Origin: Sipunculus nudus
Taxonomy: Eukaryota > Annelida > Sipuncula > Golfingiida > Sipunculidae
Length of the DNA stretch: 64,000 nucleotides
NCBI GenBank assembly: GCA_026874595.1
Contig: CM049321.1
Location: 6,942,979-7,006,978 of the forward strand
Reading direction: 5' to 3'
Shown: in pieces, positions 7,872-52,868 of the stretch
How positions within the stretch are numbered: the first letter of the stretch is position 1
How the letters are laid out: each line of letters begins with the position of its first letter
Notes under the pieces: model-generated
Seen by the model: only the letters and a program-made list of their open reading frames with translations
Database searches by the model: none
Told to the model about the DNA's origin: nothing
Translations under genes and position numbers: made by a program

Positions 7872-7900
7872 TTAAACACAAATTTTTGCCTGCCTCGTGT
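7872..7900 (-). CDS. Tentative terminal exon of locus A
   Basis: The last well-supported exon of locus A ends at a phase-1 donor at 8358, so a further exon must exist. On the minus strand a pyrimidine-poor acceptor TTATTATAAG precedes 7900. Reading in phase 1 gives about nine codons (ACGAGGCAGGCA and so on) to a TAA at 7874-7872, with AATAAA shortly after. Phase and poly(A) position fit, but the exon is tiny and has no homologue to compare, so another terminal exon is quite possible. Confidence 0.22.
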
Positions 7901-10900
7901 CTTATAATAACAATAAAATATATGATAGACATAAACAAGAAATCGATGGCGAGTGTAGAAAAACAACAGTAACAGTAATAACAAATAAAGCATAACTTAT
8001 AAAAAAGAAATATTAATACTTAAATATTAGGGATGTAATATATAAAGGTGTTATAAAAACGTACAATCTATTTTGCATGGATGGTACAACTAGTGACAAC
8101 AACTAACAGGAGGGACTCTTCAATTTCAAATGATTACGTCTTCTAGGTGTAGGAGTCGGGGATACCGTGAAATGAACCGTCGAACTTGGACTGGCAATTA
8201 CAATTTTATCCCCTGGCCAAGCCTCGGATCGGACCAGGGTCGCCAGCGGCGAAAGCCGAGAATTTTACTAGTCGACTGTCCAGGCCCCACTTACGGAACT
8301 GTACTTAGCAAATACAACTCTAAACTTTTAGACATTTCCATTCAATTTTGCACTGACCTGTTTTTGATCTTGCGGTGGATTCACAAATTGCATTGTAATC
8401 GAAGTGACAACGCGAGTTCCCCCATTGGAACCCAAGGGTTAACGTATTGATTGCTGCGCAATACGAATTTTTAGCAATAAAGAATGGTTGCCCAGGAAAC
8501 CAATTGCTGTAACCCATTTGTTTCCCTGTTGAGGTCCAGTGCCAGGTCAGTGTCTCCGGATTATATGACAGAGCGAGCCAGTAGTATTTCATATTCCCTA
8601 TAAGAAACATTATTACATTTTGTTATTAATTTGCTTCTATTGTTATTCCTTACATCGCATTGAATCTTATTCAAAAGTACCTATTATCTTTATGAAAATG
8701 GAATCAGAATGATTTAAGGCATTATTTAGATCTTTGGTTTATAGAATTTGACAGTGGAACAATATTCTACGTTATGTGGACACATGACGGCTAACCTTTA
8801 TAAATGATATTTGTTTCATGAAAGATACTTCATGAGCTCTATCATACTTGTTCCTTAATTGTTTTGATAAATAAGATTAACACAGACTCCCTTAATTTTT
8901 ACAATGTGTGCCTGTTTCATTTTCTCTGTTCTCTGACAGCCAAGAGAATAAATTCCATTGAAATGCAAGCCGAGAGTCACTGAGAATAAGCCCATGGCCA
9001 GAGATTAGTTTATTTTGAAATGATAGATTTACCGTGTTTCTTAATGAAGTTTGCCACATGCTTCTGTTCTTCCGGTGTTTCTATGGAAACCAGGTAACCC
9101 TTTTTCTCCTGGCAATTTTTTTCTGCTGAAGTAAGGTTGACGGATCTCTGGATGCATAAGGTATAACAAATTGTTTCAATATAGGGGGTTTCCAGGTGCG
9201 CGCATATGCTATTATGCGTGCAAAATCGCTCATATGGTTTAAGAACTGGGGTGTTTCCATGTGTCTGTCAGCGCACATACATAAGTGCGTATATGCGTGA
9301 ACTGAGGGACTGGGGTAAAATGATTTCACTTCACCATCGCTTTTTGGAAGGCCTGCTCGATCCTTTGAATTAATATATGGAAACACGCCCTATTTTTACC
9401 AATAAACGCATATACGCGCACGTGGAAACACGCCCTTTTTTTTACGCATATACACTCATATGCATATACGCGCACATTGAAACACGCCTTAAGTCTGTTT
9501 AGAGAAAAAAACAGGGTCTTGTTTCCTGTATTGCATGGTCAAATCTAGCATGATTATATGATAAATATGTAGTATCAATAAGCCTTTTCCTGATGTATTA
9601 AACCAACACAAAAGGGAATAATCCCAAATTCCTAACCTTGTACAATGTATAACAGTATACCTATGTCCTGCAGCGAGGACAAAACCAGCGCTATTGTTTT
9701 TATTATTTAATGTCTATACAAGTGGCTCCCCAAACAAGTTCTGGCTCAATTAACATTTGGAGTTAACCGTCTCATCATCTGCTTCTGCAGGAATGACAGG
9801 CCAAGCCGCGTGACAATGTCATGATGTTGTGAAAAATTACAATTTTTACCATGACTTCCTGTATATATGAGGGTTGGCGTAATTGTAATGTGTTATTGTG
9901 ATTACCAGTAATTTATTACACTTTTTCAAGTAATTGAATTTAATTTGTAATTAAACAAAATTAAATTACAAGTAATTGTAATTGTAATTATTAAAATGGT
10001 AAAAATAAATGTAATTTCAATTACTTTTCAATTACTTTCCTAATTCCTGACAGAACACCGTACTTTATACCTCATTTCTCTGCACTATTTATCAATAACC
10101 TTGGGTGAGGATTGTAAACTATGATTATTGAATTAACAATACCCATGTATGTTAAAAGCATGGTTATTTGTATGCCTTATAAGTTATACTGGCATTTTTC
10201 TACCATAAATGAAACTTTATATGAACCATGCTTCTGTATATTATCATGTTTTATTAAGTAGCTGTAAGTAATTAAATACTTTTTCAAAAGTAATTGTAAT
10301 ACCATCATTACTTTGTAAAATGTAAGTAATTTGTAATTGGGATTTTTGGAAGTAATTGTAATTGTAATAATAACATTTCAATGTAATAGACCCCAACCCG
10401 AAATTCTGAATAATGGTAAAAATCCTAAATACCTTGACATGGTAATAGCACGAAGGAGTCTGGATACCATGGTTGTCCTCTGGTGGTACAAATATGTTGA
10501 CAAACCCTTCTGGACAGTCTGTAAATATAAGTTTACTTGCATCTAATTTTGAGTTTATAAATATGTAATAAGACATGCGTTTTGCAGTCAATTTCACATT
10601 GATTCTTCCAGACCTTTCAAATCTTTTATTGGCAGTTCTTTATCTCTCCACAACCACTTGAGATGTCCCCAAAGTCGTCCCTGGAGACATTTGCAAGACT
10701 GTGTTCCACTGGCATGTCGACTCTAGCGTCAGTAAAAATATTAATCCCGGCATAGCAGAGTTGCAGCACTGTTTTCCACTTGGTCTGTTTGATTAAATGA
10801 TGAGCGGGTGGTATTACTGGTGTTTGGAGTGTTACAAAACCTCTTACTGAATACTGAAAAAGTACCTTGCAAGTGCCTTTCAGCGGAAAACATGAGTTCC

Positions 10901-12939
10901 TGGGTCAGTTGTTTTGTGGTCTCGTTGCTTGCCCTGTACCTTGTGTGGAACCCGGGACCTAGTTGCCATTAGCGAAGAAGTAATTTCTTTTGGCAGCCCA
11001 GCTTTCAGAGTATTTACTAAAGTACTCTTCAATGGTTTATTCAAGTGAACGAAGGTAATGTAATGATCCTTGTTTTCTATGAGATGTCTAAAGGAGGACA
11101 TATATCAAGATAAAAACACCATTTAATTGATTACTCGGCTTTATCTTAAGTCAAACTTGCTCTTCATGGTATTGTACAATACCAATCTTGATATTGTACA
11201 ATATTGGCAGAATTCGTGATAGGATTTTTCCTCTGATGGGGAATAATGTGATGATTCTATACTCAAACCAGTCTGTTCATTTAAAGTGTTCCACGCTCAG
11301 AGAATCTGATAATGAATTTTGTTTAAGGGCATACGGAGTTAACTGCTGCATTGTGACCGCACAGCTGGTAAATAAATGTTTTGAAATTGGTATGAGTAGC
11401 CTGCCAGTTGTCCTGTCTGTTGGCAAATGCTTTCCGTCAATTTATTTGGGGGGAATTTCAGGACAGCCCAGAGTTCCAGGATACCCTCCTTGTAAGGTGG
11501 TCCATTTCTTTTGAATTGCCAGATATTTGTTTTGGAGTCTATTCAAGATGTGGCAGAAGATTACTTTCTACTTGGAAATCGCAGACCAGGTGATTTATAA
11601 ATGTATGCCTTATTCAAAAAGAACGAGTGACTGAATTTCCAGGTCATTTTCATCAAACATATGTATACAGTGAAACCTGTCTTAAGCGGACAGCCAAGGG
11701 ACTCATTCATTTTTTTTTAATAGTTAGGTGTCCTTATAATGCAGGTTGACCTTGGTTGATATCTGAGGTATTATAAATCAAGACAACGAATAGCTTCAAG
11801 AACGTGTTCATTGTATGATATCAGATTTCATGTACATGAACAACACTTTCACGCACAAATCATACATTAAATAGACATTTAAAACTGATTATTTTTTACG
11901 TTTAAGAACTGACACAACCCGTGTCTTACCACAGTGGCAAGTGCAAGTGCACGTACGCTCTTTTTCGCTGATTCACTCAGTCGAATAAGCTTGGCTTTCA
12001 TCGATAGCGTAAGATCCTGCCTAGGAGTACGCCCGTGCCACCTGGCGGCATTATCTAAAACTCTCCTGGTTCAGCTGTACCAATGCGATAATCTCAAAGA
12101 TAATGACGACGTTGATAATGCGAAGATTGTAATAGCTACGAACCTTGGAACATTCGTTTTTATGGGTGAATTTAGCATCTGCCTTAAATAAACTTTCTTT
12201 GATGACGGTTGTAAAGTTTGATTTGCTTTGATATTGAAGGCACCCGAGATTAAACCCCGACAAGCTTGTGCATGGCGGCACGATACAAACAACTACGGAG
12301 AGAGCGCGTTTGACACTTAGCAGATCAATTTGAGATATATTGAGCAAACACTAATTAATGAATATCAAACGGCCTGCTACAACAAAGTAGCTAAGTTTAC
12401 AGTTAGATACTGCGTGGTCAGATCAGTGACGCATGGGACATCGGCAGCCGTTTCATCAATTTAAAGTCCCACCGGTCGAGCGAATAATATGCAGCTTCGC
12501 AACGTGTGAATGACCAACCAGTGAAATAAAAGAGACACGATGTTTAACGCTTCACCCTTGCTGTGTTTATCTTATGAGCACATCACATAGTGAAATGAGC
12601 ACGTGCACACATTAAGGTAACAAATGGGGATTGCATACTTCCTTTGTGTTCCAGTCTCCGGAACAACAACAGCACGGGTGGCCTTTGATGTTACCCGGGG
12701 CGAGTGATCAGTGTCCGCTGGTGATGGCGTATTATGTCCGTATTTGTCAGGTTCATTTACTCTTAGAATGTTGGTCTGAGTTGAAATCTCCTGTGCGTTG
12801 TCCGCAGTAGTGAGGTGTCCGCCTAATAGAGGTTCCGCTTGTACATAACATATAGGGAATTTTTAAGGAACTTGACTATCTTGTCCGTTATAGCCAGTTG
12901 GCGCCTAAGCGAGGTGTCCGTTAGACCAGTTTTCACTGT

Positions 12940-13011
<72 letters not shown>

Positions 13012-14925: not shown

Positions 14926-14973
<48 letters not shown>

Positions 14974-15076
14974 ACAAAGCCAAGTTTACCAGAAAGTTAT
15001 ATTTTCTCTTGAGGTTTATATTACGAATTATAAAAGATATATGATACATAAAATGTTATATAGCAACATTTGAATA

Positions 15077-15129
<53 letters not shown>

Positions 15130-15285
15130 CTTAGAATCTAACCACATTCACCTGATGATCGGGTCACATCCCGTGAATCAGACTGTTGTGAATTAACAGT
15201 GTTGTTTTTCTTCAGATTTATACCGCTCTGGCCTAGTCTGTAGGCCATAGAGCACTTTAAATCGGAGGGTAACACTACCTTCTAT

Positions 15286-15356
<71 letters not shown>

Positions 15357-16511
15357 CAACATATGGAAATGTGAGCATCTTAATATTATCAATTTATTTT
15401 TTATTCACAAGACATTTTCAAATTAGCTCAGTTACGTCATATATATTCACTTCTATCAAAACTACTCCCTGTAATATCTTTTGAAATATAGTTCCTAACG
15501 AAGTAACCATAAAGCTCATGTGGATAGGGGTCAAATAACGAGCAGAATATATGCCCCCGGCCGAAATCCTGAGTCCTGAAATTCTTCTAACAAAATGTTA
15601 CACCTGACCACAATAGCAGTCAATATTTATGTTTGAAATGTTTACGTCGATTGACAATGACACTCACCGAACATGTTTTCCTTATTTGTAATACGTGTGC
15701 TCATTGGTGCTTTCAGAATAAACCATTTCTTATTCTCCTGTTCAAGTGGTTTCAGTTCAGCTTTAATAAAAATGCAGATGCATGCTGATAATAATGATGC
15801 CTGATTTAGATGCTACATAAATATTTTATTCTGTTTTATTATGAGTGTATCTTCTGTCAAATGGTTCAACTAAAGCCTCGATTAACGATGTTTAAGAGAG
15901 ATATATGTTGCATAATGTATGTTAGTTTTTTACCGATCCTCTTCCTGTTCCATGGTCTAATTGTGTTGATTGAGGAGTTAAGAATTACCAGTTTTTCATT
16001 CTTACGGACGTTTCGTTTCTTTCCGCCTGTTGCAACTACAATCACATATACAGATGAATGAGACTGATGGTTTCACTTTTCACACAGAACTTCATCTACA
16101 CCCTGTGTTTTTGTTCATTTGATTTGCTGGGTTTGGTAAATAATAAGAGGGCTAATTTACACACGGTTGTCTCTTATGCGAACTGATTTGCTCATCAAGT
16201 TTAATGTCCCACAAAAATTTCTTGTTTATCAAGTCCTCAGGTTGGGAAATAAGCACAATGTTGCATTTTTTTCATGCCTTTCAGAAGTGTACGTATTCCA
16301 TATGATGCTGAATATCTGTGCATGCTCACCCACAACCTGGTGCCTATGCCAATCAAAGCCTAAAAAACTGACATTGCGTGTGTACAGAGCAACTTATGCT
16401 ACGTCTTACCGCATTATACAAATGAAAATCAATACAAATCCATATCTTTACACACAGGCGCACACATATATATGCCCTGTGTACAGAGGTGCCCGTAAGG
16501 AGAGGTTCCAC

Positions 16512-16561
<50 letters not shown>

Positions 16562-17496
16562 TATATAATTATTTATCAATTTGCATTCTAAACGCATATT
16601 GTCTAGTCAATTATCTTTTTTCATTTTTATTATACGAGTATTTTTTTTTTAATTACACAAATTCCCGCATCTATGGGCCGATCAATTCAAATATCATTAT
16701 CAAGAGGTTGTGTTTGAATAGTATTTTGCAAAAAGATCTACATATAAGTTGAAATATCATCGAACAACTGATATGAAAATAAAATAACACCTGGTTGGTT
16801 TTGAATTAGGCCTTATTATATTGGATAACAATAGATTGAATGAAATGAAAGTTTTCGCTTATACATTACTTTTCATTTTAACAAATGTTGTGGTTTCAAA
16901 TGCACTTTCTGTGGACCAGTTGCTTGCAAGTCCAAGCACGCATTCACTGGTTTTACCCAGTGTTGCCACCTGGCATGATGTTTTGGTATTGCAATGCGCA
17001 AGGCATCCCAATATGCGAGCCATGGGGATCCCGGTCCCGAGAGATTGTTGCGTTTTTGTTGAAATCATCTTCCTTCCGTTTTGAACTTGATACCAGTTGT
17101 CAAATGACAACGACGCATAAGTCTCTAAAACATAGTTTATTTTTTTCTTGTTGTAAATGTTGCTAATAAGAGCAATAAATTTCATATATTGGATAACATA
17201 TCGACATACGTCATGTTTTACAGCTTGTATATACAATTATGAAGAGTATGTTCTTAAACAATAACGCTCAGTTTACTGAAAGAAACGCAATACAGATCTG
17301 TAAATACACTAAACGTAAAATTAAAAAAATTAAAGATGCTATCCATTTAACTTTTTAACGGACAATTCTTGAGAAAAATATAAGGTATCTTTCCTAAATT
17401 GTTCTTATTTCCCTCCGGTGTGTTTTTACCTGTATTGACTCTAAACAAGTAGAATGAGAGCATTTGTAGATGATATATAATCAGTCTCTGCCTCAT
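7872..17496 (-). CDS. Locus A: secreted PAN/apple-CTLD protein, whole gene span
   Basis: Span of a multi-exon minus-strand gene. Recognised exons in transcript order are 17496-17430, 17124-16870, 15760-15668, 10518-10433, 9147-9033 and 8597-8358, plus a doubtful terminal exon at 7900-7872. They encode about 285 residues: signal peptide (1-23), PAN/apple-like domain (23-108), variable linker (108-139) and a long-form C-type lectin-like domain (139-286). All exons join in frame and have canonical GT-AG borders. The CTLD keeps its four core cysteines and the extra N-terminal pair of the long form, but the usual EPN/QPD and WND calcium/sugar motifs are replaced by GQP and WGN, so calcium-dependent sugar binding is doubtful. 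Likely an extracellular recognition protein. This is the least damaged of three family members here. Confidence 0.72.
8205..8293 (-). repeat. Old tRNA-derived SINE-like fragment
   Basis: The stretch shares AAAGCCGAG, TTTTAC and GACTGTC-AGGCCC blocks with the better preserved copy at 51165-51305, in the same orientation. The tRNA-like head reads on the minus strand. It lies just downstream of the last CTLD exon of locus A, inside its final intron. Confidence 0.45.
8358..8597 (-). CDS. Locus A exon 6: C-terminal part of C-type lectin domain
   Basis: A 240-bp exon, phase 1 in and phase 1 out, with acceptor TTCTTATAG and donor CAGGTCAGTG. It encodes [18 protein letters not shown] at the start of the CTLD long loop, then [22 protein letters not shown] and NAICES. 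These match the WIGL core, the W-x-W strand, the loop proline, and the last three core cysteines of the CTLD fold. The EPN or QPD triplet expected at the primary calcium site reads GQP, and WND reads WGN, so calcium-dependent sugar binding is probably lost or altered. The tail (TARSKTG) runs into the next intron. Homologous damaged exons are at 40689-40903 and 52740-52868. Confidence 0.85.
9033..9147 (-). CDS. Locus A exon 5: N-terminal helices of C-type lectin domain
   Basis: A 115-bp exon entering in phase 0 and leaving in phase 1 (donor ACGGTAAAT). It encodes [20 protein letters not shown] followed by [16 protein letters not shown], the two alpha helices of a CTLD with the first core cysteine and the glutamate of helix 2. 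The tryptophan usually found before the first helix is leucine here, while both paralogues keep tryptophan (NWTSA). Exon length is identical to the locus C homologue at 52216-52330. Confidence 0.85.
9184..9489. mobile_element. Palindromic MITE-like element
   Basis: The ends are inverted repeats: the left end reads GGGTTTCCAGGTGCGCGCAT and the right end contains GCATATACGCGCACATTGAA followed by ACACGCC. A second copy of the right end occurs at about 9390-9434 (GCATATACGCGCACGTGGAA), so the right terminus looks duplicated. No transposase frame is present. It sits in the intron between exons 5 and 4 of locus A. Confidence 0.6.
9860..10380. repeat. AATTGTAATTAC-type low-complexity repeat flanking an exon
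   Basis: Repeated TAATTGTAATTG and ATTACAATTAC words occur at about 9880-10030 and 10255-10370. They look like one AT-rich dispersed repeat family. No coding function is evident; it is intronic in locus A. Confidence 0.5.
10433..10518 (-). CDS. Locus A exon 4: CTLD N-terminal strand with extra cysteine pair
   Basis: An 86-bp exon with acceptor TATTTACAG and donor AAGGTATTT, phase 1 in and phase 0 out. It encodes [20 protein letters not shown] then TPSCYYHVK. The Cys-Pro-x-Gly and Cys-Tyr pair is typical of the first beta strands of long-form C-type lectin domains. The homologues at 38190-38275 (86 bp, stop inside) and 48074-48151 (78 bp, frameshifted) confirm the exon borders. Confidence 0.85.
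10620..11660. other. Intron 3 sequence of locus A
   Basis: No further exon or named repeat was recognised here on either strand. Several short frames exist but none has domain features or matched splice sites. Confidence 0.4.
11668..12938. mobile_element. Terminal-inverted-repeat DNA element, non-autonomous
   Basis: The left end CAGTGAAACCTGTCTTAAGC is mirrored at the right end, which on the minus strand reads CAGTGAAAACTGGTCTAACG followed by GACACC. The left end follows a TA. The terminal CAGTG resembles Tc1/mariner-type ends, which target TA, but a flanking TA is not clear on the right. Internal GTGTCCGC words recur at about 12710, 12810 and 12920. No transposase was recognised in the 1.27 kb. 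It is inside intron 3 of locus A. Confidence 0.55.
12943..13006. repeat. (TA)n microsatellite
   Basis: A run of about 64 bp of TA repeats directly after the right end of the 11668-12938 element. Confidence 0.95.
13010..14640. other. Intron 3 sequence of locus A, nothing recognised
   Basis: No exon with family similarity, no clear repeat and no RNA gene was recognised. Confidence 0.4.
14651..14827. repeat. GC-rich dispersed repeat with inverted ends
   Basis: The left end GCGGATCCGGGGGTGGGT and the right end ATCCTGGATCCACCCCTG are imperfect inverted repeats. The interior alternates GGGTCCAGG and GGACCCC-type blocks. This is the pattern of a short non-autonomous element; the base composition is very unlike the AT-rich surroundings. 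Confidence 0.6.
14926..14971. repeat. (TA)n microsatellite
   Basis: A TA run of about 46 bp within intron 3 of locus A. Confidence 0.95.
15077..15128. repeat. (TA)n microsatellite
   Basis: A TA run of about 52 bp to the left of the repeat segment at 15199-15283. Confidence 0.95.
15199..15283 (-). repeat. (TA)n-flanked repeat, one-armed copy
   Basis: It contains GTGTTGTTTTTCTTCAGA, CCGCTCTGGCCTAGTCTGTA and GGAGGGTAACACTACCTTCT. The same sequence occurs in inverse orientation at 58221-58332. Both copies are bordered by long (TA)n tracts, which suggests that the element targets or carries them. Confidence 0.75.
15283..15353. repeat. (TA)n microsatellite
   Basis: A TA run of about 70 bp, interrupted once, directly adjoining the preceding repeat. 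Confidence 0.95.
15668..15760 (-). CDS. Locus A exon 3: linker between PAN and CTLD
   Basis: A 93-bp phase 1-1 exon with acceptor TTTATTAAAG and donor TTCGGTGAGTG. It encodes a hydrophilic segment ([20 protein letters not shown], then [10 protein letters not shown]). Homology to the locus C exon at 47773-47868 is seen in the shared end (GAAAAC, TTCG, then GTGAGTGT) and the shared ILK/ILN position; the rest has diverged. It has no recognised domain and probably acts as a spacer. Confidence 0.7.
16518..16556. repeat. (TA)n microsatellite
   Basis: A TA run of about 39 bp within intron 2 of locus A. Confidence 0.95.
16870..17124 (-). CDS. Locus A exon 2: PAN/apple-like domain
   Basis: A 255-bp phase 1-1 exon with acceptor ATGTTTTAG and donor AAAAGTAATG. 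It encodes about 85 residues: [17 protein letters not shown], then [20 protein letters not shown], then [11 protein letters not shown]. The spacing of cysteines (C-x3-C-x5-C and a later C) with a CQVATL-like strand is that of PAN/apple modules, which bind proteins or sugars in secreted proteins. The locus C homologue (47234-47488) has exactly the same length. Confidence 0.75.
17430..17496 (-). CDS. Locus A exon 1: start codon and signal peptide
   Basis: A 67-bp exon from ATG at 17496 to the donor ACAGGTAAAA. It encodes [18 protein letters not shown] plus RVNT: a basic start and a hydrophobic stretch, compatible with a signal peptide though a weak one. A second in-frame ATG is codon 12. It ends in phase 1 as required by the PAN exon, and its length equals the locus B homologue at 36278-36344. 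The position and phase make it the best candidate, but it is not proved. Confidence 0.6.

Positions 17497-19046: not shown

Positions 19047-19060
<14 letters not shown>
17497..19060. other. Intergenic sequence upstream of locus A
   Basis: It would contain the promoter of locus A, but no clear TATA or initiator element is distinguishable in AT-rich DNA. It holds a 66-bp sequence (18093-18158) repeated at 18977-19043, and a poly-G run near 18750-18770. No gene was recognised. Confidence 0.4.
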
Positions 19061-36277: not shown

Positions 36278-36344
36278 ATGTCTATCATTTTCACAAAGCA
36301 CATTCCGGATACGCTTTTATTTTTTATGCTTAGACTCTTTGCAG
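36278..36344 (+). pseudogene. Locus B exon 1: signal-peptide exon, intact
   Basis: A 67-bp exon from ATG at 36278 to donor GCAGGTAAGA. It encodes MSIIFTKHIPDTLLFFMLRL plus FA: a plausible hydrophobic leader ending in phase 1. The length is the same as locus A exon 1. It is the only exon of locus B without a lesion. Confidence 0.6.
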
Positions 36345-36459
36345 GTAAGAATAAAGCACAAGCGTGTATAAAAATGCTGACATTTTTCTAAGTTTAGCAT
36401 GATGGCTTACCTTTTTAACATCTTGTCATATCCGTAACAGCTAGGCCTGCGTTTCAGAC

Positions 36460-36460
<1 letters not shown>

Positions 36461-36522
<62 letters not shown>
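36461..36522. repeat. (TA)n microsatellite
   Basis: A TA run of about 62 bp in intron 1 of locus B. Confidence 0.95.
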
Positions 36523-36524
<2 letters not shown>

Positions 36525-36613
36525 GAAAGAGATTTGATTCAGCGGTCACGGCAACTAAATGTAATATGTGCAAAAGTTTTTCAATAAAATTATAACTATT
36601 TAATATCTCTTAG

Positions 36614-36853
36614 TGGCAAATGTATTGCTACCGTTTGACACCTGGTATCGAATGCAGATCGAAAGTAGGATGCTGTCAATCAAAACAAATCGATTTCACA
36701 TGACAGGGCTCCCCATGACACGCACTGTGCGATGTAAACGCCTCCTGTCACCTGGCAGCGCTAGATACAAGCAGTGATTATATGCTTGGACTCTCTAGCA
36801 ACTGGTCCATAAAAGAAACAACTGGAGTGATCACTTTTGAAAAGATAAGACGC
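36614..36853 (+). pseudogene. Locus B exon 2: broken PAN exon
   Basis: It opens like the locus C PAN exon (LLPFDTWYRMQI, then RMLSIKTNRFHMTGLPM) and then loses about 17 bp over the first cysteine cluster, shifting the frame into stops. The end lacks the expected GT donor after AAGATAAGAC. Nucleotide identity to 47234-47488 is still high, so the decay is fairly recent. Confidence 0.85.
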
Positions 36854-37421
36854 TTGTAGGTTATTTCTACTTAACCATCGTATTAAGCAAACATTCAAAA
36901 CACACACACGTACACACACAAACATTCATTCTATATGACTTAAGTTATTACAGACACGTAAGAATGTCATAATGAACAATCGGGCACACCTGATTTCCAT
37001 ATACCCACCACAATGCAAGAAAAAGAGAAAGCAATCATATGGTCTGAGAAACGCACAACTTAAGTCACCATTCCCAAAAAGATGAAGATTTAGGATCTAA
37101 ACAAATATTTGCTCTAGATAGATTCGTCAAGCAGTCTTACTTTGCTTCTAATTGATAATATGCTGTTGGGATGCATGGGATGTATATAGATTTGAATGTT
37201 ACCATTGTTTCTCGACAAAATCATGGAAAACATTGTTAATATAAATGACAAAAATACAACATGACAAAAAGGAACACATCTTATTTATTTCGAATACAGA
37301 TTGACAGAATTTATAACAGGCATAAATAGGACATATTGAAACGATTTTCTCTCGGTGTCTTGTTTTACTGTTAGGAAATCATGTATCCTTAAAATAAGTA
37401 TACATAAATATTGATTAACAG

Positions 37422-37500
37422 TTAGACAGATACGAAAAGAACATCACAATGGAGAACCGATCACTCTAAATGTAAGCACAACAATAGTTTGCATAACTAG
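37422..37500 (+). pseudogene. Locus B exon 3: linker remnant
   Basis: After acceptor GATTAACAG the sequence shares AGA-ACGAAAAG-ACATCA, AATGGAGAACCGATCACTCT and AAATGTAAGCACAACAA-like positions with the locus C linker at 47773. Similarity fades near 37490 and a stop follows. Confidence 0.7.
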
Positions 37501-37509
37501 TTAAACATT

Positions 37510-38189
37510 ACATGTAGTATAAATTAGTATATATGTTACTGTATGCTTATTCTAATACGGCTAGGATTTTTTTATGGTTCAAATTCAATCAATCCAAACT
37601 CCTTTTTTTCATTGCTTGTTTGCCTTGTTGCCTTTTCATGTATCTATTTGTTTGATATTTTTTACTTCTTTATCGATACTGGTGCTTTGATTTTTGTTTT
37701 CTTTTGGTAACACGGGGCTATTGTACGTGTTTCCCTAAGCAGGTGATCGAGGAAGCAATGACATAATCTCAAGGGTTGTCGGACCATAATTCTGTTATGT
37801 AAGTAAAAAGAAACTAAATTTGTATTTTATGTTTGATGGAATTCGCGACGTGAAGGCATACTGCTTGTTACTATGACTTAACTTGGAAAATTTAAGTATA
37901 TGATGCAATTGAAACGTGTTATTATGTAACACCTTTGATATATTCAAATATGAATTTGTAATACGTATATAGGCCCCTCGGACAACTGCTCTCGCACAGA
38001 AGACTTTCTGTAAACTCATTGTCGAGCCATATGAATATTCATCACACCCCTCCTGAAATGACAAGAATACTTAATTGTTTGTTTACACAAAGCTCAGACA
38101 GGAAACTCTCTAAACAAACATGATAATTTTTAATAATTCTAATTTTATGTCGGAACCTTAAGGCTGAATTCAGATAATTATACTTGCAG
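37510..38189. other. Intron 3 of locus B
   Basis: AT-rich sequence without a recognised feature. Confidence 0.4.
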
Positions 38190-38275
38190 AATGTCCAAAA
38201 GCGTTCGATGACTAATTTGAAGCATCCGAATATTGTAATGGAAGACAGGTCCCATCATGTTATCTTCATGTCATG
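38190..38275 (+). pseudogene. Locus B exon 4: CTLD start with in-frame stop
   Basis: An 86-bp block, the same length as locus A exon 4, with acceptor CTTGCAG and donor ATGGTATCA. It begins ECPKAFDD, then TAA, and later reads VPSCYLHVM, which lines up with TPSCYYHVK of locus A. Confidence 0.85.
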
Positions 38276-39809
38276 GTATCAATAGTCTTTGACATCATTC
38301 AAAATCCACTTAATATATATGGACAGGACCCGCCTTTCCCCACATGATTTTTTAAAATTTTTACTTTCTGGTTTTGATGTGTTTTTTCTGAGACCTATAA
38401 ATAAGAAATGTAATCCGCGGTACGCTCTTTACATTGTGACTCTTTTTACTGTTTTCAAAAGCTTTGATTTTGCCTGTTTTCGCTTGTTTATGCACGAGAT
38501 GTCAAGTCGAAATGTTTGATTAATTCGATTGCATCCGATGTGGAAGTTACCTTTTGCTATGCGCACTGATTACTTCAGCTTAAAAGCTGATCTTAATAGG
38601 CTGATGTTCAGTGGCACCTACATCATGTATACCTGGCGAGATATAAAAAAATCGATATGAAAAAGGGAAGAAATGAAGAGCTACATTTTCATCAGTGTTT
38701 TTTCATAGCTAGTGTTTTAAGCAAACATATATACATGCTCTGTTTTTTATGCATATTGAAGGTAGGTGAATTATAATCATGCGGCACCCTTACGCCGTTG
38801 TATAGTGAATGCTGTTGATATGCAAGTTGCATCAAACGGATCATTGTTTGCAACAACCAATTATGTTAAAATGATAAACATCATGATGCACAACGTAGTT
38901 ACTGTTGTTGGTTATGAGTAATAAGTTAGGAACGTGGGTGCTATCGCTAACTTAGGCAATGTTTACTTGATTATTGGGTTGGTTCGTTCTTTCAATATCC
39001 CTGAAAGGTTTGGTGTCTTTCTGTAAGTTCTAATGTATTTCCAGAAATTCCCCGTTTTGCTCCGAATCAGCAACAATTACTAAATATCCCGGACCATTGC
39101 TAGCAGATGGTACTGCGTATTGTTTACAAATTAAGAAGGGAGATGTGTTCTTTAAATCTTGCGAATTCAATAATTCGATGCATGGTTGAGGGAATAGTCC
39201 ATAGGAGCATTAGCCGCTTCATAACTTACCTCTGAATCGTAATAAGTTCCCCCCCCCCTGCACTTGTTTTAAACATATTTTCCTGTGTGAGACCCAACAC
39301 CATACTGAATTCCAGCTTCTAAAAGGACACATTATTTCAAACAACACATTATTTTTTTCTAAATTGTACTGAACCAGGGAATAAAATGTCTTGTAATATT
39401 GACAGGTAATAAAATAATTTCTTGTGAGATTGTCGGGAGAAGTATGTTTAGATTTAAATTATTTCATATCAATCAAGCCAAGAAATAAATTATCTGAAAT
39501 AGTACTGAAAAGCGAATAGTATGGTTTGGTCATTTCAGGTAGTTAACAAAAGCATTTTGTTCATAAGCCATATTTCTCCAGCAAAACATTTCATATACCT
39601 TATTAACTTCCTTTTGTGGTATAAGGTAACCGAAAGTTTATTAGTGCGACCCCAGCTATGTATTCAAAGAATCTAAAGTTGAAATTACAATAATAAATTA
39701 CTGGTATTGAAATTTTAATCCCAGGTCAGGGCTTATGGGTTAATTCTTCTTTATCTTCAATTCTTCTGATGGGTTAACAACCAAAACAAAGGTATAATAA
39801 TAACGTATC

Positions 39810-39813
<4 letters not shown>

Positions 39814-39853
<40 letters not shown>
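39814..39853. repeat. (TA)n microsatellite
   Basis: A TA run of about 40 bp in intron 4 of locus B. Confidence 0.95.
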
Positions 39854-39854
<1 letters not shown>

Positions 39855-39952
39855 CATATAATATCCTATAATTATTCATATTAAGCTGATATTGCCGCCA
39901 CCGTTTTTCACAACCAGCTGTACTATTATTTTTTTCACATTTATTTAAAAAG

Positions 39953-40067
39953 GAAACCCATAACTGGACATCGGCTGAAAAGTTATGCAAACAAAAGAAC
40001 GGATACATCATGGCTATAGAATGAGCAGAAGAACAGGCACATGTGACAAGATTTATCAAGAACCATC
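39953..40067 (+). pseudogene. Locus B exon 5: CTLD helix exon, stop and lost donor
   Basis: A 115-bp block identical in length to its homologues. It reads ETHNWTSAEKLCKQKNGYIM, AIE, TGA stop, then AEEQAHVTRFIKNH. The base pair after the expected phase-1 end is AT instead of GT. Confidence 0.88.
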
Positions 40068-40688
40068 ATCACACAGCCTCCATATGTAAATTCATTATTC
40101 TATCGTTTTATATATACACTAAGTATGTGATAGCGTTACCTTTCCAAGTCTACATCTCAATAAGTTTGTATAGTTATAAGTTTTAGTGCTGGCCTAAGAG
40201 TTGGAGGTATGATGATCCTACATTGGTCAAGTAACCAATTTACATAAACAATGTACATAATTACATCAAATATCTCATAAATAAGGCCGTTTTTCTTTAC
40301 TTTTATAGAGACAGGTCGATCAGCGTGTCAGTTTTTATTTATTGATGTCACTTTCTCAAATCAGGGGGTCCATACTTTAAAACCCCGATATATAAATTTG
40401 AATCCACAACATTATGAGAAGCAGAGGTGTTTTATGTTACAATAGAGAAGCCGGTGGTCCTTGCAAATGCTTCTTAATTCAGGTAGCATTAATCACCTCT
40501 GAAAGCTTTGAAAATTAACTCTCTAAAGAAAATTAACCACCTATGAATAAAATGGAACTGAACTCCTTATAGCATATGTGCATCTTTAAATCTTTAATTT
40601 ATAGATAAGGTGCAGGTCAATTTTAAAGTTACATAACAAATACCTCTTTGGTATTGATATGGTTTATTATTGATTTTAACAGTTCAGC

Positions 40689-40903
40689 TGAATTACCACT
40701 GGATGTCTATGACTTACAATCCGCTAACAATGATACGGGGAATCCAGTAGAGTATACAGTTTAGATGACCGGACAACCAGTCTTTGATCGACCAAAGGCG
40801 TATTGCGCAGCCATCGCTCCTCTGTTTTCGTACTCATGGGTAAACTGGCCTTGCCACCTATCATACAGAACTGTCTGTGAATCACCCCTAAAAGCAAGCA
40901 AAG
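40689..40903 (+). pseudogene. Locus B exon 6: CTLD C-terminal exon, frameshifted
   Basis: A 215-bp block against 240 in locus A. It begins NYHWMSMTYNPLTM, loses the frame over the W-x-W strand, and resumes in another frame with MTGQPVFDRPKAYCAAIAPL, SYSWVNWPCHLSYRTVCESP. The acceptor AG before the expected first base is replaced by GC; the donor AAAGGTAAATG is intact. Confidence 0.88.
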
Positions 40904-41700: not shown

Positions 41701-41711
41701 CCTATGTTATA

Positions 41712-45140: not shown

Positions 45141-45159
45141 AGCCATTAACAACGTATTT

Positions 45160-45390: not shown

Positions 45391-45589
45391 AACAAATCTG
45401 CTATATGATTAATTGATTTTTATAGCAGTCATTTAGATGAAAGGAAATCGAGTCGAACTAAGGATATGATGTGGTCTTAATGGCCACGTATTGGCTTTGA
45501 GGATGAGTAGGCATAGTAAGTATACATAACACAAGGGCGGTCACAAGGTGAGCAACGTTAACAGACACTTCAAGAAATTACCAACAAAA

Positions 45590-45653
45590 ATGTACCAAGT
45601 ATACAGTTTACCTATACTGTCGATAGTCCTGTTTGGACTTGGGCACTTAACAG
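45590..45653 (+). CDS. Locus C exon 1: signal peptide
   Basis: From ATG at 45590 (context ACAAAAATG) to donor ACAGGTAAGA. It encodes MYQVYSLPILSIVLFGLGHL plus T, a textbook signal peptide. It ends in phase 1 like its paralogues. Confidence 0.82.
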
Positions 45654-47233
45654 GTAAGACTCGAAAAGGAAGAGCTGTATCGGGTTCTTTTTGACTGAAA
45701 CATTAACAAAATCTTATTGTGAAAGAATTGCAGATACTTATTCTTATTTCCGGGAATTGAGCGCCTATGTGTAATCGTTTTTTTCTGTACTGTGTATTGT
45801 TAAGGTCATCCATAGAACCACAAAAAGTAAATAAAAATACAAATTGTTTACTTCTGATGAATGTTTATTATGTACACTTTACATAAGAATTCGCGAATAC
45901 TAGTCACATATGATCTATTGAGCATTCATAACCAGTAGAAATGTATGGATATCGATACAGTCCCTTTCAGGGAGATCCACTGTGTATAACTTAATATTAA
46001 AATCCGCTGACCCAAGAAGCCCCCAAAAAGGCAGATCATCAAATTTCCGACTAACCGTTTTGTAGTTATATTTTTTCTTTTATAAACATTTCCGATCTTA
46101 TGTCGGCTATGCTTTCTTTATGTCCATATAATTAAAGTACTAGTACAAACCTTTTTTTATGTCAGTGAGGATGCAATCTTAATTAAAATACTTAAATCTA
46201 CTGAGAAAGGATATTATTTAATAGATTTTTTAAAATAGAAAAAACAATTGTTTTACATTTCGTTTCTTCATCTCATATTAGGATAAATACTGTTTTCATA
46301 TCTGATCAGTATAATAATTTCATGTTCTTCTAATGTGAACAAAGAAATAAATTATTCAGCAAAAGACATACAAATAGTACGATTTGACCTGGCACTATTT
46401 AATTTTAGCTTTAAGAAGCAATTTACATGGACACATGGTGTATTTATCTTTGCTTTTATATTAGATCCTTAACCACATGTCACTTCGACATGATTTGCTT
46501 CTATACAAATATCATAATAAAATACACAGAACAAAAGTTATCTTCAACGGCACGAAGAAATATGTTTAGTGCATGGTTAATACAGAGTGAAATCGCCAAG
46601 TGTGGGCACCGTTTAAGTGCATCCATCATTGTCAGATCACGAACTGCCATTTCTAGATATATTTTCCGAACAAATATATTGATTTTGCTCACATTTTTCA
46701 TATTAAACGTTAAATGCAATAAAAGCTATAGCAAATAAAACGAATAATTAACCAAGAGCTATACTGAAGCAAATTAAAGGTAGATTTGCGGGTTTTGTCA
46801 GCTATCCCAGACATTGATTTACATCCATTACATAAATTAAAATGAAAGTACCGAAAGATTGTTTGATTATTGAGAGAAAACGATGACCGTCCTATTGTTC
46901 TTGTGATCCGATCATGATTTCATTAACCTGACATTCTTACGACCGGTACCATAAACCGCCACTAAAGGCATTGTCGACAAACATGTGGATTATTTTTACC
47001 CGAACAAATCTGCATATTCTCTATTTATTTGTGTTTGGTTTTCCTTCAGGTATGGAAAGAGAAGAAAAAAATCATATATTTTAGCAGTTTAAGTCTGACA
47101 TGGATTACCAGTTTGGAATCTTTTGAAGGAGATACCAAATTAAGCAAGCATGTGTCCGCAATACTTAATGTGATACTCTCTGTATATATGTGTCCATTTA
47201 TCCAAAACGTGGTTCAATTAAAATTTATTTCAG
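45654..47233. other. Intron 1 of locus C
   Basis: AT-rich, no exon or named repeat recognised. Short frames around 46427-46738 have no support. Confidence 0.45.
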
Positions 47234-47488
47234 CGGCTAATGCATTGCTACCGTTTGACACTTGTTATCGGATTGAAAACGGAAGGAGAATGTTATCCAC
47301 AAGAATTAAGCGATTCCATGTGACGGGGCTCCCTATGACATGCACGTTCGGTTGCCTGGCACTTTGCAATGTCAACACATCATGTCACCTGGCAACACTA
47401 GGTACAGGCAGTGAATGCGTACTTGGTCTTACCAGTGACTGGTCATCAGAGCGCGCACCTGAAGCCATCACGTTTCAAAAGACTAAAG
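47234..47488 (+). CDS. Locus C exon 2: PAN/apple-like domain
   Basis: A 255-bp phase 1-1 exon, acceptor ATTTATTTCAG and donor AAAGGTATGA. It encodes AANALLPFDTCYRIENGRRM, then TCTFGCLALCNVNTSCHLAT, then GSECVLGLTSDWSSE. Against locus A it has two extra cysteines (DTCYR and MTCTF), which could form an additional disulfide. The frame is fully open. Confidence 0.82.
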
Positions 47489-47772
47489 GTATGACAGATT
47501 ATTAAAATTTTATACCAGTTAAATTATGCTAGTTTCGTATACACATGTTTATTTAGTATTAACAAATCTGGATTCAGTTTTTAGATAACATACTACATAT
47601 TTTTGTCTTACTGAAATCGAGCGTGGAAGTGTTTTTTTTCTTGAACGTCGATGTGAAACACAATTTGCACATCTAATTAAGAAAGAACTTTATGTCCTTT
47701 TTTTTAAAATTTAAGCAAGTTATTTATAGCATATATGTTTGCTTTTCAAATTATATACGGCATTTGTTACAG

Positions 47773-47868
47773 AAGTTGGAGAGAAACGAAAAGTACATCA
47801 GAGTGAACAACGGGTCATTCTAAATACAACAAAGAAAGCAGAAATTCCGGAAAACAGGACTACATTCG
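47773..47868 (+). CDS. Locus C exon 3: linker
   Basis: A 96-bp phase 1-1 exon, acceptor TTGTTACAG and donor TTCGGTGAGT. It encodes the hydrophilic stretch EVGEKRKVHQSEQRVILNTT then KKAEIPENRTTF, with N-glycosylation sites NTT and NRT. It has no recognised domain. Confidence 0.72.
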
Positions 47869-48073
47869 GTGAGTGTTATTAGGAACCCTCGATGTCAAAA
47901 AGCCAAGGTTTTCATAACCTTTATCCCAGCTGTTAGACTAGTTTATTGGGTAGTTGAATTAATGTTTCAGAAAGTCAAAGCAGGAAACAATATTAGCAGT
48001 CACGGTCCTTCATGAAGTATATTTAAAAATATTACACCTGACTCCATACTTACAAATGATTTCATTCTTGCAG

Positions 48074-48151
48074 AATGCCCGAAAGGGTTTGCTGAAATGT
48101 TTGAACCACCGAACGATGGCACAGATTCCATCATGCTATCTTTACATCAAG
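48074..48151 (+). pseudogene. Locus C exon 4: CTLD start, frameshifted
   Basis: A 78-bp exon against 86 in both paralogues. It begins ECPKGFAEMFEPPNDGTD; the homologous end PSCYLYIK is present but in another frame. Acceptor TTCTTGCAG and donor CAAGGTATGT are intact. The missing bases lie between the GATGGC and CCATCATGC positions. Confidence 0.82.
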
Positions 48152-49109
48152 GTATGTATTATCTAATACTATTCCAGCATTACTCCTGTAATAAGAAATC
48201 ATGTAAGATCCCAGCAAGTATCACATTTACATCGGAACACCAGATTAACAAAGCTTATCAAAATTGACACAAGAGTATATATGATATGTCTAAAATATCA
48301 ACTTAGGCATGTAAAGGAATTGTATATATGTTCTATGTATATTTTACGATAACTGATTAAACTGTTTCCAAATGAAAATATTGAAAAAATGAAAGTCTAC
48401 TTCGACAAATATGCCGCACAATGAGGGTGGATAGAAAAACAAATAAAATACATACCAAATTTAAGATACAGATAAAATATATTTCACCTTAGAAAAATGT
48501 ATATAAACAAAAAAATGATAATAAGTGCTTAAAAGCAAGCATCGGTATTTTTGCGCAACATATAATTCATAAGTGCTAACATAGCCGTCTTAAATAAGTT
48601 GGGAAAATGCACGCCAAAATGCGTAGTCCAGTGTGTGAGGCGCTTGACTTTTGCACGGTTAAGTTACAGTTCTATGTCAGCTAAATCCCCAAAAACAGCG
48701 TTTCTCTATAAAACTTCATCCGGAATCAGCTTGTGTATCGTTTCTGATCATGTTGATTGATTATCCAATGAATTCGTTTCGTTCATCGCGCGATGAGAGC
48801 CTCAACATCCTTAGATTCTGCTTCAGCAGAATGTTTTGTATCTTAGATTATATATAGTATGAACTTATTTTATTGTACTTGGATTGTTAACAAGGCCTAC
48901 AGGTCCAATGCAAACCTGTGCAATGGGACACACAGGTATATTGCTTCCATGATAACATTATTTGAAATGTACCTGCTTACTTTTCAAGTACATTTGTGAC
49001 ATATTCATGTACAATGAAAGTACTGTCATTTTGAACCTGAGTACAAGCACCAATAACACAAGCGTCACTGCTGAAACGCTAGCTTGGATCCACACAACAC
49101 AAAATATTG

Positions 49110-49460
49110 TAAGTTGCGCCATCATTCTTGTGTATGAGACAGCCATCGAAGATGTATAAACATGGAAAATTCCAGGCAGTGACATCGATCACTTAGTTGT
49201 GATTTGTGCACAGATGCATCATACCTAAAAACAATTGTAGGTGGCTCCGAAAGTCATGTTTACAACGAATCTATTCGAGATGTATGGACAGCCAAATTCC
49301 AGGCTGACATGTCGAACCACTCCTGAGAAATAAGAAGTGACAAAATCACTCTGCAAAAAAATAGTTTGGTATGGACCCCCAGTCTTGTGTACACGAAGCT
49401 ATCCGAGATGCATAGACATGCACACTTTCAGACTGATACATCAAACTTCTCAGTCAGGTG
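49110..49460. repeat. Three-copy tandem repeat, about 129-bp unit, in intron 4 of locus C
   Basis: Anchors GATGTATAAACATGG, GATGTATGGACAGCC and GATGCATAGACATGC occur near 49150, 49277 and 49408, each followed by TTCCAGGC-like sequence and a TGACAT or TGATAC-like block. Divergence is moderate. Confidence 0.6.
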
Positions 49461-50229
49461 CACTCAGATGACCAAGCTCAACTGAGGCAGACAGTTGCCC
49501 CCAAGTGAACCGAAACTATTGTGCAGGTGCAACAACTGCACTGAGTGAACTCACCACCTGTACCTGGCTGCACTGATTCCACTCCTGACCTATTGTTTAA
49601 TCTGATACAGTCTGTCATAGCTATAAATAGATGCCGACTGAAACTTAACCTGTCACCTAATTTGTAATAGTTGCCAGTCTGCCAAGACATTTATAGACAC
49701 AAACAAAATCTTCCACATACTGAAAAACTTTGGAAACAATACTTTTTTCAATCTGACCTATTCATAAGTGTTTTTTTATCAAAAATATTTAGAATAATAA
49801 CAGATGCCAATAAAATAAAATCAAAATAAAGATATATGTTATCCATGGATTTATCTTGCACATAAGTTTGATATGGACACAAATTACTTATGTTGCCCGT
49901 ACAGCTCTGCTTATATAACGAAAGAGCTTAGTATGTTACAACGTTAAATCATGAAGCTTTGTTTACCGAAGTATGTCACAGTCCTTTCATTGATAAATGT
50001 CCAATATTTTAGCCAAAAATCATTTGAGTAAACTTTACTCTAACAATGATTTTTTTGTAATGTTAAAGATTTTGAAACAACGGTTTTGCAAGCCCTCAGT
50101 TATATATAGGTTTACTTATACAATTGAGAGAACAATTAACTAAGATAACTCTTGTGAAAAAATAAACTATTCGGCTTTACAGTTTCATCATGAAACATTT
50201 TATATGTAGAAGTCGAAAGTGGTTAAAAT

Positions 50230-51070
50230 TATGAGGTTTGTGCCAATAAAAAATAGGCCGATAAAGGTAGCGCCACAAAAAACCTGTTTCAAATATGAGT
50301 AATATAACCAACATATGCAAGAATCTTTGTGATGCTAGCTCCTGTCGTTTCTCAGATTGTCACGTTAGTATGCTTACATGGTCAAATGACTAAGTTCAAT
50401 TTCCTGTAACCCAACTAAAAGTCATCAAACCTAAAGCATTTGAGGAAACTTGATAGAGCTAATCTCTGGGACCATTTCTATTCAATATTAAACATTTTTC
50501 TCAATCATTTTGGAAAGAAGGTATTCAAAGTTTTTTAGCTGTCTTCCCAGAAAATGTATTTGATGTCGGTTGCACCACAAAAAGCGACATGTGACTGATG
50601 TTTGCATAAAATTTGCTTATGCTAGCTTCTGCTGTTCCTGAGAAATTATGGCTAAATGTACTGATGACAAAAGACCCAGTTGGCTCCACCACTTCAAAAT
50701 CAAATATGACTTATGTGACCAACATCTGCATAACATTTACTGATGATAGCTCCAGCCGATTCTGAGAATGTATTTAAGCATGCTTTTCTGGCCAAATAAA
50801 TAAGTTCAGCTTCCGGTAACTCTACCAAAATTCACAGACCTGAAACCATTTAATCAAACTTGAGAAAAATTGTTTCGGGGATTATTTTATTTTTAATATT
50901 GAACAATTTAGCTGAACAGATTCAAAGAAAATTTTTTAAGTTTTTTAGCCCTTCCCTATAAAATATAAGTCAAGGCAGAAAGAAAAAAAAATCTCAATCC
51001 GAAAGAATTTATAGGATGACTGATTTTTTGCATAACATTGTGTGATGCTAGCTCCTGCCGATTTTGAGAT
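50230..51070. repeat. Diverged tandem repeat with GCTAGCTCCTGCCGATT motif
   Basis: Variants of GATGCTAGCTCCTGCCGATT occur near 50330, 50616, 50742 and 51042, with shared blocks such as TAAGTTCA-CTTCC, TCAAACTTGA and GTTTTTTAGC. These look like four partial units of one dispersed repeat. Confidence 0.6.
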
Positions 51071-51164
51071 TGAATGGGGTAACGTACAGACGACGGCCGA
51101 CTGGCGACTCCAGACCATCGCATAAGCTCACCTGTTTGCTAACTAGTTCCAATAAGCCATACGT

Positions 51165-51305
51165 GCTTCTCTCCATGGCGTCGGGTAGGAGGAAACCCGG
51201 AGCACCCGGAGAAATTCACCGGCCCTGGACGGACAAATGCAATCCGCTCTCATAGCCAGGCCGGGGATCAAAGCCGAGCGTTTTACCCCTGGACTGTCAA
51301 GGCCC
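51165..51305 (-). repeat. tRNA-derived SINE-like element
   Basis: On the minus strand a tRNA-like head (GACAGTCCAGGGGTAAAACG, then CTTTGATCCCCGGCC as a B-box region) is followed by a body containing CTCCGGGTGCTCCGGGTTTC. The GC-rich sequence is unlike its AT-rich surroundings. A diverged partner lies at 8205-8293. It is inside intron 4 of locus C. Confidence 0.65.
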
Positions 51306-51309
51306 GCGA

Positions 51310-52215
51310 CTGTCATATGCAGCTCTATTAATGCAGCTTAGCCAGGATGAAATGGTGGCCCCATGAAGCTGGCCATGTTAAATTAAGGGGTTTCATAGAG
51401 GCTGTTAACGGGTGCCCCGATCAGCCTACCTGTTCTGATTTTTCACCAGAAGTGTAAAGACTTTCTACAAACAACCTAAATGAAGTACTACAGTATCTGG
51501 CACTTTATCTTGCCACTTTATCTTTTAAATCAGACATGTCTGGTTGAACAGTTTAGCTGCCTTGCTTGCCTCCTGTACACTGTATATGTTTCACAGGTAA
51601 AGAGTACCGTTGGAAGTACAAAAACACAATAGAACTTCAGCTTTTTTGTGAGGCTAATCCCCGAAGCTCCCATCAGTTACTGCCTAGACCTTTGGAGGCA
51701 GAGTCTGGTTGTGCTATTTTTCAGTGAATTTCAGCATCTTAATTCATCAATATTCAAAGATACAACATTGCGGATTCTGGTATGATGAAAATTTTCTTCC
51801 CCAGTAGTTTCTCCTACCACAATTGTACACGGGTCTTCCTTAAACAGATATAAGGCCAAACAAAGGTTGGGTTTTCAAGCACTTTTTACGGAAATCAGTG
51901 CGCGAGGGCGATTTTTATACATTTTTATGTATACTGTCATATGATCAGGGGAAAGCATGGTAATAACAGAATTGTTTTGCTAAACATGTAAAAGCACTAC
52001 ATAACACAGGAAATCTGATCAAAAAATGTTTTATTTAATCTTCTTGAAAGAAATGTCCGAGCGGCTGGAGCTCAAAATGGATAAGTTTCTATTGAAAAAT
52101 CAAAATCATTTTTTTTATTCGGGGGGGGGGTTAAAATTGACGCGCTCGGGGCCTGAGAACCATACTTTTATTTTTGTTGGCCTAGTCAATCATTTATTTC
52201 ATTTTCTCTGAGTAG
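51310..52215. other. Distal intron 4 of locus C
   Basis: Nothing coding recognised. A poly-G run is at about 52122-52131. Confidence 0.4.
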
Positions 52216-52330
52216 AAACCACAGAACTGGACATCAGCTGATAAAGAATGCAAGGAGAATGGCGGATTTCTCATCACTATAGAATCTGAGGACGAGCAAA
52301 AGCACATAGCAACATCCTTCAAGCAACCAT
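52216..52330 (+). pseudogene. Locus C exon 5: CTLD helix exon, intact in itself
   Basis: A 115-bp exon entering in phase 0 and leaving in phase 1, with acceptor TGAGTAG and donor CCATGTGACT. In the family frame it reads KPQNWTSADKECKENGGFLI, TIESEDEQKHIATSFKQP. It is open, but the upstream frameshift means it would be read out of frame. Confidence 0.8.
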
Positions 52331-52739
52331 GTGACTTCATTATTTTATTTGTGCAAAATACGTTTAAAGTGTCTATATCTTTATATTTTTGTGTTTGTAA
52401 TGAAACACAGATCAGATGTTTCATTTATCGTAACACAAAAAAAGGAATTAAGAACATATTTCTCTTTTGAATGTTCCAAAGTATAGTGGAATGCCCTCAG
52501 TGTTCAATGAGGTGTATGATACTAAAAAAATTATTAATAGGATCAAATTGTCATGTTATAAAATGAAGGATGTTGGCCCTTTCTTTTAAAATGAGAAATT
52601 ATACTCACGGACATCGTACTGAATTCTAAACCTTGCATGTGAGGTAAGATAAAGGTAAGATTAAAATGCAAAAATGTGCATAAACAAGTATAAACAATAT
52701 TCCCTTTATCTTGATTTTATATAATGGTGTTTTTAATAG

Positions 52740-52868
52740 GGAATTACTTCTGGCTTTCTCTGGCATACTGCGCAGTCCTCAACCCCCTTCTCATGTACAA
52801 CTGGGGAAACTCGCGTTGTCACTTTAAATTTGGTACAATTTTTGAATCGCCTGGAAGGCGGAACACAG
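52740..52868 (+). pseudogene. Locus C exon 6: CTLD C-terminal exon with 111-bp deletion
   Basis: A 129-bp phase 1-1 exon; locus A has 240. It reads [42 protein letters not shown]. The segment between SLSY-like and SYC-like positions, including the W-x-W strand and the calcium-site loop, is missing as exactly 37 codons. The last core cysteine (ICES in locus A) is Phe here (IFES). The fold is very probably not viable. Confidence 0.85.

What the first reader, a model, noticed from the sequence alone, without database searches (positions are those of the whole stretch)
7872..52868. Three-member PAN/apple plus C-type lectin gene family with conserved exon structure
Loci A, B and C share the same six exons with matching lengths (67/67/64, 255, 93-96, 86, 115, 240) and identical phases. 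One locus is inverted relative to the other two. A secreted PAN domain joined through a variable linker to a long-form CTLD with altered calcium motifs is an uncommon architecture and could be a clade-specific recognition family. Novelty is inferred and not checked.
Basis: partly seen in the sequence, partly recalled or inferred. Interest (0 to 1): 0.72.

Follow-up and report, generated by a model that had tools for sequence, protein, structure and literature searches.

The report
One lectin-like gene, three dead copies
In this animal genome one apparently intact gene for a probably secreted lectin-like protein lies beside broken relatives of itself, so the supposed three-gene family is an ordinary case of gene duplication and decay.

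Summary
The homologous six-exon loci are real, but a three-member gene family is not. Locus A (minus strand, 17496-8358) is open through all six exons (865 nt, 288 aa): a short leader exon, an 84-residue cysteine-rich domain, a basic linker and a long-form C-type lectin-like domain (Pfam Lectin_C, E 6e-15) with altered calcium/sugar motifs. Loci B and C share exon order and ancestral phases but are disabled. B has 17-nt and 16-nt deletions and three in-frame stops. C has an 8-nt frameshift, lacks 108 nt of the lectin long-loop exon and has lost a core cysteine. Several reported exon lengths therefore fail (C: 78 not 86, 129 not 240; B: 221 not 240). A fourth relic of exon 2 lies near 1.8 kb. 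The "PAN/apple" label rests only on a cysteine pattern whose family meaning I recalled; Pfam, PDB sequence search and structure comparison do not support it. dN/dS between A and C is about 0.3, so the family was constrained during its history. CTLD plus PAN/CW proteins are already in print for nematodes. The best reading is birth-and-death evolution of a lectin-like gene. The species and any copies outside the window remain unknown.

The parts
17430..17496 (-). Locus A exon 1: start codon and hydrophobic leader, 67 nt
16870..17124 (-). Locus A exon 2: cysteine-rich domain, PAN-like by cysteine pattern only, 255 nt
15934..16035 (-). Locus A exon 3: basic linker, 102 nt (93 nt if a second AG 9 nt downstream is used)
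10433..10518 (-). Locus A exon 4: N-terminal part of the long-form CTLD (first cysteine pair), 86 nt
9033..9147 (-). Locus A exon 5: CTLD, 115 nt
8358..8597 (-). Locus A exon 6: rest of CTLD, 240 nt to a GT donor; if unspliced, a stop follows about 12 codons later
36278..36344 (+). Locus B exon 1, leader, 67 nt
36614..36851 (+). Locus B exon 2, pseudogene: 17-nt deletion shifts the frame; GC instead of GT at the expected donor
37422..37471 (+). Locus B exon 3 remnant, 50 nt alignable
38190..38275 (+). Locus B exon 4, in-frame TAA at 38213
39953..40067 (+). Locus B exon 5, in-frame TGA at 40022
40683..40903 (+). Locus B exon 6, 221 nt: 16-nt deletion, TAG at 40761 in the ancestral frame, 3-nt gap shared with C
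46983..47049 (+). Locus C exon 1, leader, 67 nt
47234..47488 (+). Locus C exon 2, open, 255 nt
47773..47868 (+). Locus C exon 3 linker, open, 96 nt
48074..48151 (+). Locus C exon 4, 78 nt: 8-nt deletion shifts the frame and loses the second cysteine
52216..52330 (+). Locus C exon 5, 115 nt, open only in the ancestral frame
52740..52868 (+). Locus C exon 6, 129 nt: lacks 108 nt (best read as 6 + 102, in frame) plus the 3-nt gap shared with B; last CTLD cysteine codon is Phe (52841)
1726..1914 (-). Relic D: decayed fourth copy of exon 2 with an in-frame stop

Best explanation
This is an old local cluster of duplicated genes for a probably secreted two-domain lectin-like protein: leader, cysteine-rich domain, basic linker, long-form CTLD. 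Only locus A is still intact in this window; B, C and fragment D are pseudogenes at different stages of decay (birth-and-death evolution). The likely mode of action of A is inferred: the leader sends the protein out of the cell, the N-terminal disulfide-rich domain makes protein contacts or oligomers, and the CTLD binds its ligand without the canonical calcium-site-2 chemistry, because the EPN/QPD and WND positions read QPF and WGN. Shown here: exon anatomy, open frame, CTLD homology, lesions and past constraint. Inferred: one transcript, secretion, ligand type, and that A is expressed.
For: A is open through six exons, with AG/GT borders and compatible phases. Pfam Lectin_C 56.3 bits against a cut-off of 22.6. 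The 60 best PDB matches shown, of 139 at E up to 0.1, are headed by CTLDs: lithostathine E 2.2e-11; the bivalve lectin codakine E 5.9e-9. Six cysteines at long-form CTLD positions are present in A. In a substitution-only neutral simulation of the A frame, 0 of 1000 frames stay open at 0.2 substitutions per site, while A-C dS is about 1. dN/dS A-C is 0.29 over 149 codons, bootstrap 0.15-0.47, 0 of 996 usable replicates at 1 or above, 4 failed. B and C carry multi-base deletions and B several stops, which single-base sequencing errors do not explain. Similarity between loci lies in the exons.
Against: No transcript data. The leader of A is only weakly hydrophobic (best 9-residue mean 1.59, against 2.33 in B and 2.56 in C). 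A GT follows exon 6 in all three loci, so a seventh exon may exist and was not found. Crude lineage counts, synonymous to non-synonymous, in exons 2, 4, 5 and 6 were A 24:57, B 27:55, C 31:38; that alignment misplaced the edge of the C deletion, and with exon 6 recounted on its 27 shared codons they are A 26:52, B 27:48, C 24:33. Either way A does not look the most constrained, although sites where all three differ are not counted. The low dN/dS is pairwise and cannot by itself prove that A is constrained today.
Confidence: 0.8

Rival explanations
1. Three functional members, with the lesions being assembly or sequencing errors or bypassed by unseen splicing.
For: Exons 1-3 of C are open and exon 2 shows low pairwise dN/dS.
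Against: B has a 17-nt and a 16-nt deletion and three in-frame stops; C has an 8-nt deletion, lacks 108 nt in exon 6 and has lost a core cysteine. Several lesions per locus are not typical of sequencing error.
Confidence: 0.05
2. C survives as a truncated, secreted protein made only of the cysteine-rich domain and linker, its CTLD lost; A is the full-length form.
For: C exons 1, 2 and 3 are open with AG/GT borders, and in the crude counts C has the highest synonymous share (31:38; 24:33 after the recount).
Against: The frame ends soon after the exon 4 frameshift. No expression data. Part of the signal may predate the decay.
Confidence: 0.15
3. Exon 2 and the CTLD exons are separate genes that merely lie next to each other.
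For: The exon 3 to exon 4 intron of A is 5.4 kb; no transcript was seen.
Against: The same order, strand and ancestral phases occur in 3 of 3 loci, with a shared linker exon 3 between them.
Confidence: 0.05

Closest known systems
Nematode CTLD proteins with CW/PAN-3 domains (class IV in PMC5297725)
   Same: A PAN-type cysteine domain combined with a CTLD in one protein; 16 tabulated in C. elegans, 0 in the other six nematodes of that table (seen: passages and table 2).
   Different: The exon-2 domain here is not recognised as PAN by Pfam, and no sequence relation to the nematode proteins was tested.
Expanded CTL and CTLD-containing protein repertoires of bivalves (PMC10140915, PMC12842671)
   Same: CTLDs with variable EPN/QPD and WND motifs, and bivalve-specific multidomain architectures (seen: found passages only).
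   Different: 'Apple' has 0 occurrences in either main text. 'Pan' at a word start has 2 in PMC10140915 (shown as 'pan-genome' and 'Panel') and 1 in PMC12842671 (not among the passages shown). So this architecture was not seen described there; supplements were not searched.
Lithostathine (Reg) and codakine CTLDs
   Same: Among the closest solved CTLDs by sequence; lithostathine also lacks EPN at the aligned position.
   Different: Only the CTLD aligns. Codakine has an EPN motif according to PMC12842671; A reads QPF.

Membership tests
C-type lectin-like domain (PF00059) | Profile match above the curated cut-off | tested here: met
   56.3 bits, cut-off 22.6, residues 173-281 of the A model
C-type lectin-like domain (PF00059) | Six cysteines of the long form (positions recalled) | tested here: met
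   Six in A; C has lost two, by frameshift and by Cys-to-Phe.
Ca-dependent C-type lectin | EPN or QPD plus WND calcium-site-2 motifs | tested here: not met
   A reads QPF and WGN at these positions (alignment). Motif meaning from PMC12842671 passages, where variant motifs are also listed for bivalve lectins.
Ca-dependent C-type lectin | Measured calcium-dependent sugar binding | not testable with these tools
   needs protein
PAN/apple domain | Profile match to a PAN family in Pfam | tested here: not met
   0 families at E up to 10 for the exon-2 proteins of A and C; HMMER's filters drop most matches above about 0.1
PAN/apple domain | Cysteine pattern C-x3-C-x5-C-x(6-16)-C-x-[LIVMF] (recalled) | tested here: met
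   A and C match; 2 (A) and 32 (C) of 20000 residue permutations match; 3 of 233 window stop-to-stop frames of 60 aa or more match, two being A and C exon 2; 0 of 228 in the reversed window
PAN/apple domain | PAN fold (sheet with one helix, recalled) | tested here: inconclusive
   AF2 models: A exon 2 with 2 rows, pLDDT 38.5; C exon 2 with 5 rows, pLDDT 53.7, all strand; no confident match
Intact multigene family in this window | Two or more members with open frames | tested here: not met
   1 of 3 six-exon loci open

The most novel reading that the evidence does not exclude
Exon 2 encodes a small secreted cysteine-rich domain that is not PAN and is not in Pfam, fused to a calcium-independent CTLD, forming a clade-specific recognition protein.
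Probability: 0.25. Interest if true: 0.4.

Novelty: new member of a known kind. Interest (0 to 1): 0.2.

Why it matters
It corrects an over-count: a gene list would score three lectins where one is intact. It also offers a small example of birth-and-death in an animal lectin cluster, with an exon-2 domain that Pfam does not recognise.

Tried and rejected

Relatives elsewhere: genome contigs and viral-contig scans with the 2-row exon-2 alignment gave 32 and 35 pattern matches but no relative. The CTLD was not scanned there. The own-genome search was asked 12 times and never answered, so family size outside the window is unknown. Rfam: 0 matches.

Literature: 8 answered searches. 'PAN domain' + 'C-type lectin' + 'mollusc' together: 0 papers. 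Passages or sections of 8 papers were seen, none whole; the rest as listings only. Leech paper PMC7191736 has PAN-domain passages and 0 'C-type lectin'. Rotifer paper PMC8878817: no 'PAN' or 'apple'. PMC7588048, PMC9334734 and PMC3269628 showed no PAN-CTLD protein in the passages found.

A seventh exon: all three loci have GT after exon 6, but no downstream block matched between loci. A plus-strand frame with a signal-like start antisense to A exon 2 (16788-17084) is taken as chance, untested. The lineage counts were redone for exon 6 because the automatic alignment misplaced about seven codons of C.

Full report
What is there. Six-frame and tblastn comparison and locus-to-locus blastn recover three co-linear loci: A on the minus strand (17496-8358), B on the plus strand (36278-40903) and C on the plus strand (46983-52868). 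In same-orientation blastn at E below 0.05 the hits between these loci are exons, plus one AT repeat and one 17-bp match; not every exon pair reaches that level (A-B only exon 2), the rest being seen by tblastn. Exon borders were set by hand at AG/GT sites. Exon 1, a leader of 67 nt, came from a scan for ATG-to-GT frames. Among 48 stop-free 67-nt candidates in the whole window, those of B (38/67) and A (35/67) are the best matches to C after C itself; the next is 31/67.

Locus A. The six exons give 67+255+102+86+115+240 = 865 nt without a stop, 288 aa. Pfam finds one family above its cut-off, Lectin_C, E 6.3e-15. The closest solved proteins are lithostathine (E 2.2e-11) and other CTLDs, including codakine. 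Exon 4 carries an extra N-terminal cysteine pair, as in long-form CTLDs (recalled). Bivalve CTLs with non-canonical motifs are listed in PMC12842671 (passages seen).

Loci B and C are broken. B: 17-nt deletion in exon 2 with GC at the expected donor, TAA at 38213 in exon 4, TGA at 40022 in exon 5, 16-nt deletion and TAG at 40761 in exon 6, exon 3 alignable over 50 nt only. C: 8-nt deletion in exon 4 (78 nt instead of 86), which shifts the frame into stops; 108 nt missing from exon 6 (129 nt instead of 240, the other 3 nt being a gap shared with B), best read as 6 + 102 nt: 17 of 21 bases of the C head match A near the exon start, against 6 of 21 beside the tail. This removes the stretch between the WIGL-like motif and the last part of the domain; the last CTLD cysteine is Phe. 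A further relic D of exon 2 with an in-frame stop lies at 1914-1726 (-): tblastn E 7e-07, blastn E 2e-04 against A, none against B or C, profile E 2.9e-05 for its stop-free part, against a best of 0.49 in the reversed window. So the window holds one intact gene and three dead copies, one of them a fragment.

Constraint. Between A and C, dN/dS is 0.30 for exon 2 (84 codons; bootstrap 0.13-0.56; 1 of 998 usable replicates at 1 or above, 2 failed) and 0.29 for 149 codons of exons 2, 5 and the tail of 6 (0.15-0.47; 0 of 996, 4 failed), with dS near 1. Codons missing in C were left out, and exons 1, 3 and 4 were not used. Estimates with B were noisier (0.15-0.59 for exon 2 pieces; some failed or gave no dS). 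A substitution-only neutral simulation keeps the A frame open in 123, 31, 0 and 0 of 1000 runs at 0.05, 0.1, 0.2 and 0.45 substitutions per site. The family was therefore coding through most of its history, and A was until at least recently. Against this, crude lineage-specific counts (synonymous to non-synonymous, exons 2, 4, 5, 6) of A 24:57, B 27:55, C 31:38, or A 26:52, B 27:48, C 24:33 with exon 6 realigned, do not show stronger constraint in A than in the broken copies.

Is exon 2 PAN/apple? Only the cysteine spacing says so (the family motif is recalled, not from a call). It occurs in A and C and in few residue permutations (2 and 32 of 20000). Pfam gives nothing at E up to 10. PDB profile searches list no PAN protein. 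AlphaFold models of exon 2 of A (2 rows) and of C (5 rows) have pLDDT 38.5 and 53.7, too low to judge; comparison of the second gave no confident match. I therefore call it PAN-like by motif only.

One gene or two? The order leader, cysteine-rich exon, linker, three CTLD exons, on one strand with the same ancestral phases, recurs in 3 of 3 loci, and the linker exon is itself shared. That makes one transcript likely; RNA was not available.

How it probably works (inferred): a secreted protein in which the small disulfide-rich domain makes protein contacts and the CTLD binds a ligand without canonical calcium chemistry, in immunity or extracellular matrix. The cluster evolves by birth and death.

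Comparison with what is known. Proteins with CTLD plus CW (PAN-3) are tabulated in nematodes (16 in C. elegans; PMC5297725, passages and table 2). Bivalves have expanded CTLD repertoires with unique multidomain forms (PMC10140915, passages). The species of the window was not established: the own-genome search did not complete (12 tries), and exon-2 scans of the prokaryote and viral collections found no relative.

Verdict. Observation partly confirmed; interpretation partly supported; ordinary, interest 0.2.

Noticed in passing
29522-29851 (+) and 30848-31219 (+): An intact-looking SUEL (rhamnose-binding) lectin exon (Pfam E 1.2e-19) and an I-set Ig exon (E 1.4e-12) lie between loci A and B, possibly another lectin gene.
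   Followed up: partly
60526-63422: Tandem array of a 337-bp unit, 8.6 copies, 85% matches.
   Followed up: no
56596-56925 (-): Weak reverse-transcriptase fragment (RVT_1, E 7e-4, below Pfam's cut-off).
   Followed up: no
1726-1914 (-): Fourth, decayed copy of the cysteine-rich exon with an in-frame stop; the CTLD profile had no hit beside it.
   Followed up: yes
55279-55476: 20-bp tandem repeat, 9.9 copies, 79% matches, open in more than one frame.
   Followed up: no
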